From assembly GCA_015222165.1 (NCBI GenBank), contig JADFUS010000005.1:1-44460 (forward strand): a DNA stretch of 44,460 bases, in the 5' to 3' direction. Both the position numbers and the translations under genes were made by a program. This document shows positions 5,493-6,857 of this stretch, piece after piece (the first letter of the stretch is position 1; each line of letters starts with the position of its first letter). Origin of the DNA: Bacteroidota bacterium. Lineage in GTDB: Bacteria > Bacteroidota > Bacteroidia > Bacteroidales > Rikenellaceae. Below the pieces are notes generated by a model that had not been told where the DNA came from, did no database searches, and worked only from the letters and a program-made list of their open reading frames with translations.

Positions 5493-6533
5493 TTAGGCGA
5501 GTTCTATACCGTATCGCATACACTCTCTACGCATCTCAACTGGCCATACACAGCTTTGTATTTCGCCAATGTGAGCTTTGCGGAGTAATAGCATACATAA
5601 TCTAGATTGACCTATTCCTCCCCCTATTGTGAGCGGAAGTTTTCCTCTAAGAAGCATATCATGGAAATATAATTTTTCCTTATATTCTTCGTTTCTCTCC
5701 TTGAGTTGTCTTTTTAAAGAATTTTCATCAACACGTATTCCCATAGATGATATTTCAAAAGATTGTTTTAGAATAGGGTTCCATAACAATAAATCACCGT
5801 TAAGACCATTATATCCCTCTTCGTTTTTAGATATCCAATCGTCATAATCTGCCGAGCGGTTGTCGTGGATTTCTCCATTGCTTAGTTTTCCGCCTATGCC
5901 AATTATGAAAACTGCTTTTTTCTCTTTTGTTATAAGTTCTTCACGCTCTTTGGCTTTTTTATCAGGGTATAGTTGAAGAAGTTCCTCGGAGTGAATAAAG
6001 AAAATATCGTCTGGGAAAATAGGTTCTATTTTTGGAAATTCTATGTATAAACTATTTTCTGTGACTTTTATAGCTTCGTATATGCGTTTGACAATCTTTT
6101 TTAGGAAGCATACACTTCTTTGTTCTGGGTAGATAATTCTTTCCCAGTCCCATTGATCAACATATATAGAGTGTATATTATCCAACTCTTCGTCAGGTCT
6201 TAAAGCATTCATATCTGTATATATTCCTCTGCCGACCTTCTCCTTTAGCTCATAAAGTTTTAATCTTTTCCATTTTGCAAGAGAGTGAACAACTTCAGCG
6301 GTCATCTCATTCATATCCTTTATAGGAAATTTTACAGGACGTTCTGTGCCGTTTAAATCGTCATTAAGACCTGTGCCAGACATCACAACGATAGGTGCTG
6401 TGACACGTAAAAGAGATAGTTGTGCAGATAAGTTTGCTTGAAACATATCCTTAACTAGTTTTATGGCTTTTTCAGTATTTCCCTGAGTGCCTAAAACGTT
6501 GTGATAATCTTTGGGTTTGATTAGTTTTGCCAT
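5493..6533 (-). CDS. asnA: Aspartate--ammonia ligase (ammonia-dependent asparagine synthetase)
   Basis: AsnA makes asparagine from aspartate, ATP and ammonia in the cytoplasm. The 346 residues match the family length (about 330-345). Recognisable AsnA segments are QLSLLRVTAPIVVMSGTGLNDDLNGTERPV near the N-terminus (residues about 37-66), VHSLAKWKRLKL, IYVDQWDWERII, and near the end LPLTIGGGIGQSRLCMLLL, which is the class II synthetase-like ATP-site motif with its Gly run and Arg. The ATG start is supported by the conserved beginning MAKLIKPKDYH. It is preceded by an apparent transcription attenuator with an Asn-rich leader peptide (see 6565-6701), so expression probably rises when charged tRNA-Asn falls. 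Confidence 0.96.
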   Translation of the reverse strand: MAKLIKPKDYHNVLGTQGNTEKAIKLVKDMFQANLSAQLSLLRVTAPIVVMSGTGLNDDLNGTERPVKFPIKDMNEMTAEVVHSLAKWKRLKLYELKEKVGRGIYTDMNALRPDEELDNIHSIYVDQWDWERIIYPEQRSVCFLKKIVKRIYEAIKVTENSLYIEFPKIEPIFPDDIFFIHSEELLQLYPDKKAKEREELITKEKKAVFIIGIGGKLSNGEIHDNRSADYDDWISKNEEGYNGLNGDLLLWNPILKQSFEISSMGIRVDENSLKRQLKERNEEYKEKLYFHDMLLRGKLPLTIGGGIGQSRLCMLLLRKAHIGEIQSCVWPVEMRRECMRYGIELA

Positions 6534-6564
6534 GATCTTTAAAGTTTATGGATTTATAGAACAC

Positions 6565-6598
6565 AAAAAAAAGCCCACCTCATTGTTGAGGTGGGCTT
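6565..6598 (-). terminator. Attenuator (intrinsic terminator) in the asnA leader
   Basis: On the minus strand AAGCCCACCTCA, loop ACAA, then TGAGGTGGGCTT form a perfect 12-bp GC-rich stem followed by a T-run (eight T). It sits between the leader ORF stop (6615) and the asnA start (6533), so it ends transcription before asnA unless prevented from folding. Its position inside the 5' leader, not behind a gene, marks it as an attenuator. Confidence 0.85.
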
Positions 6599-6643
6599 CA
6601 CTGTATATATTATTTTATTTACAATCTAAGCACGCCTCAACAA
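6583..6643 (-). promoter_or_regulatory. Antiterminator pairing of the asnA attenuator
   Basis: The RNA of 6643-6628 (TTGTTGAGG, CGT, GCTT) can pair with 6598-6583 (AAGC, CCA, CCTCAACAA): 9 bp plus 4 bp across a 3x3 internal loop. The target includes the whole 5' arm and loop of the terminator, so the two folds exclude each other. The first strand lies inside the last third of the leader ORF. A ribosome reaching the stop codon would mask it; one stalled at the Asn codons would leave it free. Confidence 0.8.
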
Positions 6644-6701
6644 ACCCACAATTATTATTATGAGAATAATTAAAATTATTATTGTTAAGGACTAAAACCA
6701 T
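6615..6701 (-). CDS. Asn-rich leader peptide of the asnA attenuator
   Basis: A 28-codon ORF (ATG at 6701-6699, TAA at 6617-6615) encodes a peptide with 8 Asn. Four are consecutive at residues 6-9, one is at 11 and three are consecutive at 15-17; it ends CGFVEACLDCK. Such density of the amino acid made by the downstream gene is the hallmark of ribosome-mediated attenuation, as known for trp, his, thr and leu operons. The peptide itself is probably without function. No clear Shine-Dalgarno sequence is seen, as is usual in this phylum. The ORF is too short for standard gene calling. Function is inferred from codon content and RNA geometry. Confidence 0.8.
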   Translation of the reverse strand: MVLVLNNNNFNYSHNNNCGFVEACLDCK

Positions 6702-6728
6702 GTTGTAATTTTATTTTGCATAAAAAAT

Positions 6729-6822
6729 GGGTAAGCTACTCATATCGCACCGCTCAACCACTTACCCTTGCTATCTTCCGATCCTGGGGGTTCAGCAGGA
6801 GCTGGTCGTATAAGACTTACCC
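6729..6822 (-). ncRNA. ffs: Signal recognition particle RNA (4.5S-like, bacterial small SRP RNA)
   Basis: On the minus strand the RNA starts GGGTAAGTC and ends CTTACCC, closing a long hairpin. Its tip has the conserved SRP domain IV: CCAGG, ATC, GGAA tetraloop (6779-6776), GAT, AGCAAGG. This is the symmetric AGG/AGCA internal loop that binds Ffh, as in E. coli 4.5S RNA. The closing stem is followed by ATTTTTT, so the molecule ends in its own weak terminator. The RNA guides Ffh-bound ribosomes to the membrane. An exact Bacteroidetes promoter lies 5 nt upstream. The end points are inferred from pairing and may be off by a few nucleotides. Confidence 0.9.
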
Positions 6823-6826
6823 ACCA

Positions 6827-6857
6827 CAAAGATAGATAAAAAATTGAGTTATACAAA
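6827..6857 (-). promoter_or_regulatory. Promoter of the SRP RNA gene
   Basis: On the minus strand TTTG (6857-6854), 19-nt gap and TATCTTTG (6834-6827) match the Bacteroidetes consensus. The predicted start falls at about 6822, exactly at the first base of the SRP RNA stem. Confidence 0.85.

What the first reader, a model, noticed from the sequence alone, without database searches (positions are those of the whole stretch)
6565..6701. Asn-codon attenuator in front of asnA (leader peptide, antiterminator, terminator)
Seen directly: a 28-codon ORF with 8 Asn codons (four at residues 6-9, one at 11, three at 15-17), a 12-bp GC-rich terminator with eight T before asnA, and a segment in the leader ORF (6643-6628) complementary to the terminator 5' arm and loop (9 bp plus 4 bp). 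The geometry fits ribosome stalling: a ribosome waiting on Asn codons leaves 6643-6628 free to block the terminator, and one reaching the stop codon would mask it. Established: attenuators of this design are known for trp, his, thr and leu. Regulation of asnA is usually by AsnC or T-boxes in other phyla, so an Asn-sensing leader peptide in Bacteroidetes may be undescribed. The regulatory role is inference.
Basis: partly seen in the sequence, partly recalled or inferred. Interest (0 to 1): 0.9.

Follow-up and report, generated by a model that had tools for sequence, protein, structure and literature searches.

The report
Asparagine-sensing leader switch for asnA
In front of its asparagine-making gene this bacterium carries a tiny asparagine-rich reading frame and an RNA hairpin switch that should let the gene be copied only when asparagine runs short; the same kind of switch recurs at this gene in many other Bacteroidota species and I found no earlier description of it.

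Summary
A 28-codon ORF (6701-6615, minus strand) with 8 Asn codons and a 12-bp terminator with eight T sit about 31 nt before asnA (PF03590). The leader therefore has the full classical set: pre-emptor 1:2, antiterminator 2:3 (-22.9 kcal/mol) and terminator 3:4 (-22.7 kcal/mol). Chance is unlikely: none of 5000 dinucleotide shuffles had both pairings, and this is the only upstream short ORF with at least 8 Asn and an Asn triplet among 1063 in two thirds of the genome. No asnA examined from its own family or order (about 195 loci) has it. Outside the order, Asn-rich leaders with terminators precede asnA in another family (58 of 58 genomes of two genera; the antiterminator strand is kept although its reading frame shifts in 11), and singly or in tandem in a third. 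A covariance model built only from those leaders finds the window element full length as the best hit in its genome (E 0.001). This is a ribosome-mediated attenuator with Asn specificity: a new member of a known kind, absent from Rfam 15 and the papers searched. Regulation itself is untested.

The parts
6615..6701 (-). leader peptide ORF, 28 codons plus TAA, MVLVLNNNNFNYSHNNNCGFVEACLDCK, 8 Asn codons
   Evidence: sequence; translation; genome rank
6675..6686 (-). first Asn cluster, codons 6-9 (AAC AAT AAT AAT), the presumed stalling site; Asn11 lies at 6671-6669
   Evidence: sequence; ribosome-masking folds
6651..6659 (-). second Asn cluster, codons 15-17; stalling here would favour the terminator in the folding model
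6682..6690 (-). strand 1 (CCUUAACAA), pairs with strand 2 (1:2 pre-emptor hairpin, -13.6 kcal/mol), overlaps Asn codons 6-7
6635..6643 (-). strand 2 (UUGUUGAGG), pairs with strand 1 or strand 3; 6631-6628 adds 4 bp to the antiterminator
6583..6591 (-). strand 3 (CCUCAACAA), 5' arm and loop of the terminator; antiterminator partner of strand 2 (2:3 hairpin -22.9 kcal/mol)
6571..6598 (-). intrinsic terminator hairpin 3:4, 12 bp, loop ACAA, -22.7 kcal/mol
6565..6572 (-). run of eight T at the end of the terminator (its first two T belong to the stem)
   Evidence: sequence
5493..6533 (-). asnA, aspartate-ammonia ligase, 346 aa, the regulated gene
   Evidence: PF03590 340 bits, E 3.7e-102
6725..6829 (-). 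small SRP RNA gene directly upstream on the same strand
   Evidence: Rfam RF04183, 93.6 bits
6827..6856 (-). only Bacteroidota-type promoter found upstream (TTG-N19-TATCTTTG), probably that of the SRP RNA; the leader is probably read through from it
   Evidence: motif scan; inference

Best explanation
A ribosome-mediated transcription attenuator that senses charged tRNA-Asn and controls asnA. RNA polymerase transcribes the leader while a ribosome follows on the leader ORF. With asparagine plentiful, the ribosome runs through the Asn codons, strand 1 pairs with strand 2, strand 3 is left to pair with strand 4, and transcription stops about 31 nt before asnA. With asparagine short, the ribosome stalls at Asn codons 6-9 (or 11) and covers strand 1; strand 2 then pairs with strand 3 as it emerges, the terminator cannot form in time, and asnA is transcribed. 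Shown: the ORF, the three alternative helices and their energies, the terminator, the gene identity, and recurrence of the arrangement at asnA in other families. Inferred: translation of the leader, stalling, kinetic trapping of 2:3, and the Asn response.
For: Complete 1:2 / 2:3 / 3:4 anatomy with strand 1 inside the first Asn cluster. A transcript ending after strand 3 folds as 2:3. With a ribosome masked at codons 6-9 the antiterminator is 3.3-3.7 kcal/mol above the terminator state in most masks tested (6.4 with the widest footprint at codon 9), against 11.5 without a ribosome and 21 with one at the stop codon. 0 of 5000 dinucleotide shuffles and 0.24% of synonymous recodings have both pairings. 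Unique in the genome sample. Only about 31 nt separate the T run from asnA, with no good promoter match, so transcripts from upstream must pass the terminator. Recurrence: 58 of 58 asnA genomes of genera g219/g603 (family f129) have a leader with 5-9 Asn codons, an antiterminator strand in the leader and a terminator. In 11 of the 58 the reading frame over strand 2 is shifted while its RNA sequence stays, so the RNA and not the peptide tail is kept. All 58 fold with 2:3 closing the antiterminator. Five genomes of family f124 have Asn leaders, three of them in tandem. Covariance model R1, built without the window, finds 6563-6701 full length, 30.9 bits, E 0.001 in 785 kb, next hit 20.5 bits.
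Against: None of about 195 asnA upstream regions from the same family and order has an Asn-run leader, so there is no direct covariation test for the window's own helices. In the f129 alignment covariation of 2:3 is not above column shuffles because the pairs hardly vary (93.9% of cells paired). Once complete, the terminator is still the more stable fold even with a stalled ribosome, so the switch needs kinetic trapping. No independent promoter was found; transcription appears to depend on read-through of the SRP gene. Promoter use, translation and response are not measured. The genome is an incomplete assembly (58%).
Confidence: 0.87

Rival explanations
1. The Asn-rich ORF is an accident of AAT repeats in an AT-rich intergenic region, and the hairpin is an ordinary terminator (for the SRP RNA or the leader transcript) with no regulation.
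For: The genome sample is 31% GC and Asn makes up 6.4% of codons in its long ORFs. The family relatives lack the ORF. The SRP RNA lies immediately upstream.
Against: 0 of 5000 shuffles have both pairings; unique among 1063 upstream ORFs; cognate gene directly downstream; recurrent Asn leaders at asnA in other families; independent model hit. A constitutive terminator about 31 nt before asnA would shut the gene off.
Confidence: 0.07
2. The leader acts on translation or mRNA stability of asnA (stalled ribosome or reinitiation), the hairpin being a stabiliser rather than a terminator.
For: Leader ORFs have been proposed to aid translation of downstream genes by reinitiation (PMC4833913, listed).
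Against: Canonical hairpin with eight T; no helix found that would hide the asnA start; the alternative pairing targets the terminator's 5' arm.
Confidence: 0.04
3. A T-box or another metabolite-binding or tRNA-binding RNA controls asnA here.
For: asnA is T-box controlled in some Firmicutes (own knowledge); regulated termination is shared.
Against: Rfam finds only the SRP RNA and a tRNA in the window; at relaxed thresholds there is no T-box, and leader families stay far below cut-off (Thr_leader 26.4 of 55 bits). No T-box-like core upstream of the window asnA.
Confidence: 0.02

Closest known systems
Ribosome-mediated leader-peptide attenuators of amino acid operons (E. coli trp, his, thr, leu, phe; Rfam Trp_leader RF00513, Thr_leader RF00506, Phe_leader RF01859)
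   Same: Short leader ORF rich in codons of the pathway's amino acid; three mutually exclusive hairpins; intrinsic terminator before the cognate gene; strand 1 inside the regulatory codons.
   Different: Asn codons and asnA; no match to the Rfam leaders above gathering score; the leader lies behind an SRP RNA gene.
Bacteroid-trp RNA (Rfam RF01692, Weinberg et al. 2010, PMC2864571)
   Same: Structured RNA reported from Bacteroidetes; from my own knowledge it lies upstream of trp genes and is probably a leader attenuator.
   Different: Different amino acid and gene; no Rfam match in the window.
[quoted passage not shown]
   Same: Bacteroidota; short peptide plus structured 5' UTR before amino acid genes.
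   Different: Asparagine is not mentioned in the main text; supplements could not be read here.
asnA control by AsnC (E. coli) or T-boxes (Firmicutes) (own knowledge)
   Same: Same gene, same physiological signal.
   Different: Protein regulator or tRNA-binding RNA rather than a translated leader.

Membership tests
Ribosome-mediated leader-peptide transcription attenuator | short ORF with clustered codons for the amino acid made by the downstream gene | tested here: met
   8 of 28 codons Asn, asnA downstream
Ribosome-mediated leader-peptide transcription attenuator | intrinsic terminator between leader ORF and first structural gene | tested here: met
   12-bp stem, 8 T, 0.2 expected by chance in 600 nt
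Ribosome-mediated leader-peptide transcription attenuator | antiterminator that excludes the terminator | tested here: met
   2:3 9+4 bp, -22.9 kcal/mol against -22.7 for 3:4; 0.26% of shuffles reach 9 bp
Ribosome-mediated leader-peptide transcription attenuator | pre-emptor 1:2 whose strand 1 is covered by the stalled ribosome | tested here: met
   6690-6682 with 6643-6635, strand 1 overlaps Asn codons 6-7
Ribosome-mediated leader-peptide transcription attenuator | conservation in related genomes | tested here: inconclusive
   absent in own family and order; present at asnA in families f129 and f124; model R1 links them
Ribosome-mediated leader-peptide transcription attenuator | compensatory changes in the alternative helices | tested here: inconclusive
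   f129: 3 pairs changed on both sides but not above shuffles; strand 2 kept despite frame shifts
Ribosome-mediated leader-peptide transcription attenuator | read-through rises when the amino acid is scarce | not testable with these tools
   needs RNA or reporter measurements
T-box leader | match to the T-box model | tested here: not met
   no match at gathering or relaxed threshold
Rfam Thr_leader / Trp_leader / Phe_leader | score above the gathering threshold | tested here: not met
   26.4 of 55, 18.1 of 41, 25 of 55 bits

The most novel reading that the evidence does not exclude
Asn-specific leader attenuation is an old and widespread way of controlling asnA in Bacteroidota, belonging to one AsnA subclade (lost in most Bacteroidales, doubled in tandem in some genomes of family f124). 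It is built on an attenuator scaffold (GGAAGG / CCTTCC / GGAAGG) in which the sensed codons have been exchanged between amino acids (Asn at asnA, Phe at a pheA-like gene, perhaps Lys/Met at an asd-like gene).
Probability: 0.35. Interest if true: 0.75.

Novelty: new member of a known kind. Interest (0 to 1): 0.62.

Why it matters
Classical attenuation has been described for Trp, His, Thr, Leu/Ile/Val, Phe and Cys; an Asn-sensing version at asnA fills a gap and gives Bacteroidota a plausible way to tune asparagine synthesis without AsnC or a T-box. It is directly testable in relatives with complete genomes, some of which carry two Asn leaders in a row.

Tried and rejected
Conservation within the family and order: about 195 asnA upstream regions gave no second case. 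DNA search with the leader in 268 family genomes gave only short chance-like matches besides itself. SRP-asnA adjacency: not seen in any other locus. Other attenuators in two thirds of the own genome: none convincing. T-box and Rfam leaders: not met. Column covariation in f129 as proof of 2:3: not above shuffles, so not used as proof. A 1:2 helix in the f129 leaders: only about 5 bp, too short to judge. L297 as a further Asn leader (10 Asn, very divergent asnA): left open, not counted.

Full report
What is there.

What was missed. The minimum-energy fold shows that strand 2 (UUGUUGAGG, 6643-6635) has a second partner, CCUUAACAA at 6690-6682, inside codons 4-7. So strand 1, which contains the first Asn codon and part of the second, pairs with strand 2; strand 2 can alternatively pair with strand 3 (6591-6583); strand 3 is also part of the 5' arm and loop of the terminator. 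This is the full trp-type anatomy. Separate hairpin energies are -13.6 (1:2), -22.9 (2:3) and -22.7 (3:4) kcal/mol.

How it should work. Folding with a masked ribosome footprint: without a ribosome the terminator state is 11.5 kcal/mol better. With the A-site at Asn codons 6-9 the gap is 3.3-3.7 in most masks (6.4 with the widest footprint at codon 9). With the ribosome at the stop codon it is about 21. A transcript that has just completed strand 3 folds as 2:3. Stalling at the second Asn cluster (codons 15-17) would favour termination, so the first cluster should be the functional one. Footprint sizes are assumptions, and trapping of 2:3 before strand 4 emerges is inference from the classical systems.

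Chance. Dinucleotide shuffles of the ORF with the terminator held fixed reach 9 bp for 2:3 in 0.26% and both pairings in 0 of 5000; recoding the same peptide with the genome's codon usage gives both in 0.24%. In 785 kb of the same genome (about two thirds of the assembly) there are 153 terminators with 250 nearby short ORFs and 1063 short ORFs upstream of genes, of which only this one combines at least 8 Asn with an Asn triplet.

Relatives. The window's genus holds one genome. In its family, 109 of 268 genomes have asnA, the nearest 73% identical; in several of these asnA directly follows tyrS (tyrS-like C-terminus in 23 of 200 loci). None of about 195 asnA upstream regions, nearly all Bacteroidales, has an Asn-run leader, and none other lies behind an SRP RNA (motif search).

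Recurrence further out. A phylum-wide sample showed Asn-rich leaders with terminators at asnA outside the order. Follow-up: in family f129 all 58 asnA-bearing genomes of genera g219 and g603 have a leader such as MRHFRNNLQNNNSNNNLIRDWKAIAPLEK and a terminator AAGCCTTCC..GGAAGGCTT, with strand 2 (UGGAAGGCU) in the leader; the nine asnA genes of genera g601/g602, which belong to another AsnA branch, lack it. In family f124 five genomes have Asn leaders (MYFLNNNNNTNLTAFG, MILRSNNFSANNNLNNSIRSGRLLH and others), and in three of them two leader-terminator units stand in tandem. Within f129 the leaders hold 5-9 Asn codons (median 8) with AAT/AAC interchange. Strand 2 stays while its frame shifts in 11 of 58, and every sequence folds with 2:3 closing the antiterminator. 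Pair statistics: 2:3 is formed in 93.9% of cells against 31-63% when slid, but covariation is not above shuffles because the pairs hardly vary. Isolated double changes exist, for example AGAAAGGCU/AGCCUUUCG (L382) and AGGGAGGCU/AGCCCUCCU (L365), and GGAAGAUU/AGUCUUCC in L310 of f124.

Link to the window. Covariance model R1, built from the 58 f129 leaders only, finds window 6563-6701 over its whole length with 30.9 bits: E 0.001 in the genome sample, next hit 20.5 bits. Part of that score comes from the AAT runs and the terminator, so it supports sameness of arrangement more than descent. In the AsnA tree (158 rows) the window sits inside its own family's clade, which is neighbour to the clade holding nearly all leader-bearing f129/f124 sequences. 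One ancient origin with many losses and independent gain are both open (at least 4 changes forced by well-supported branches).

Known or new. Rfam 15 has no match to the leader, also not to the leaders of 13 other loci. Searches of the open-access library for asnA or asparagine with leader peptide or attenuation found no description. The library lacks most subscription papers, so this is not proof. In Bacteroidota, leader-peptide attenuation as such is known or suspected: Bacteroid-trp (PMC2864571), amino acid operons of Flavobacterium psychrophilum (PMC9723704), suspected leader ORFs in B. thetaiotaomicron (PMC7366714). I therefore file it as a new member, with new amino acid specificity and target, of a known kind.

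Open points. The only Bacteroidota-type promoter upstream is that of the SRP RNA (TTG-N19-TATCTTTG, 6856-6827), so the leader is probably reached by read-through of the SRP 3' end (CCCATTTTTTATG). That is unusual and unproven. No asnB was found in the recovered part of the genome (only an 18-bit hit below cut-off), which would make asnA important, but the assembly is 58% complete.

Noticed in passing
window 6725-6857 (minus strand): The small SRP RNA gene with a canonical Bacteroidota promoter lies directly upstream of the asnA leader; no other good promoter motif was found, so asnA may be expressed by read-through of the SRP RNA gene. This adjacency was not seen in any other asnA locus.
   Followed up: partly
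L309, L310, L312 (upstream of asnA): Two Asn-rich leader ORFs, each followed by its own terminator, stand in tandem before asnA (second leaders MTTTRKNNQNNNDPPPGG.., MPILNLNNNNNNYKSPPG, MKLLQNNNINNNSPPPGG..).
   Followed up: partly
L387:1500-1614: A Phe-rich leader (MQKQLNNYFFFFNAMR) with GGAAGG and terminator AAGCCTTCC..GGAAGGCTT precedes genes that look like prephenate dehydratase and a DAHP synthase; same scaffold as the asnA leaders with other codons.
   Followed up: partly
L388:1501-1626 (minus strand): A Lys/Met-rich leader (MKMICKNKKHNMKRFQQGKGQ) with terminator AAGCCTTTCC..GGAAAGGCTT precedes what looks like an aspartate-semialdehyde dehydrogenase gene.
   Followed up: no
L138:1437-1476: A strong terminator lies between tyrS and asnA in this family member although no Asn leader is present.
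   Followed up: no
L297 upstream of asnA: A 48-codon ORF with 10 Asn codons and a terminator precedes a very divergent asnA; possibly another independent case.
   Followed up: no
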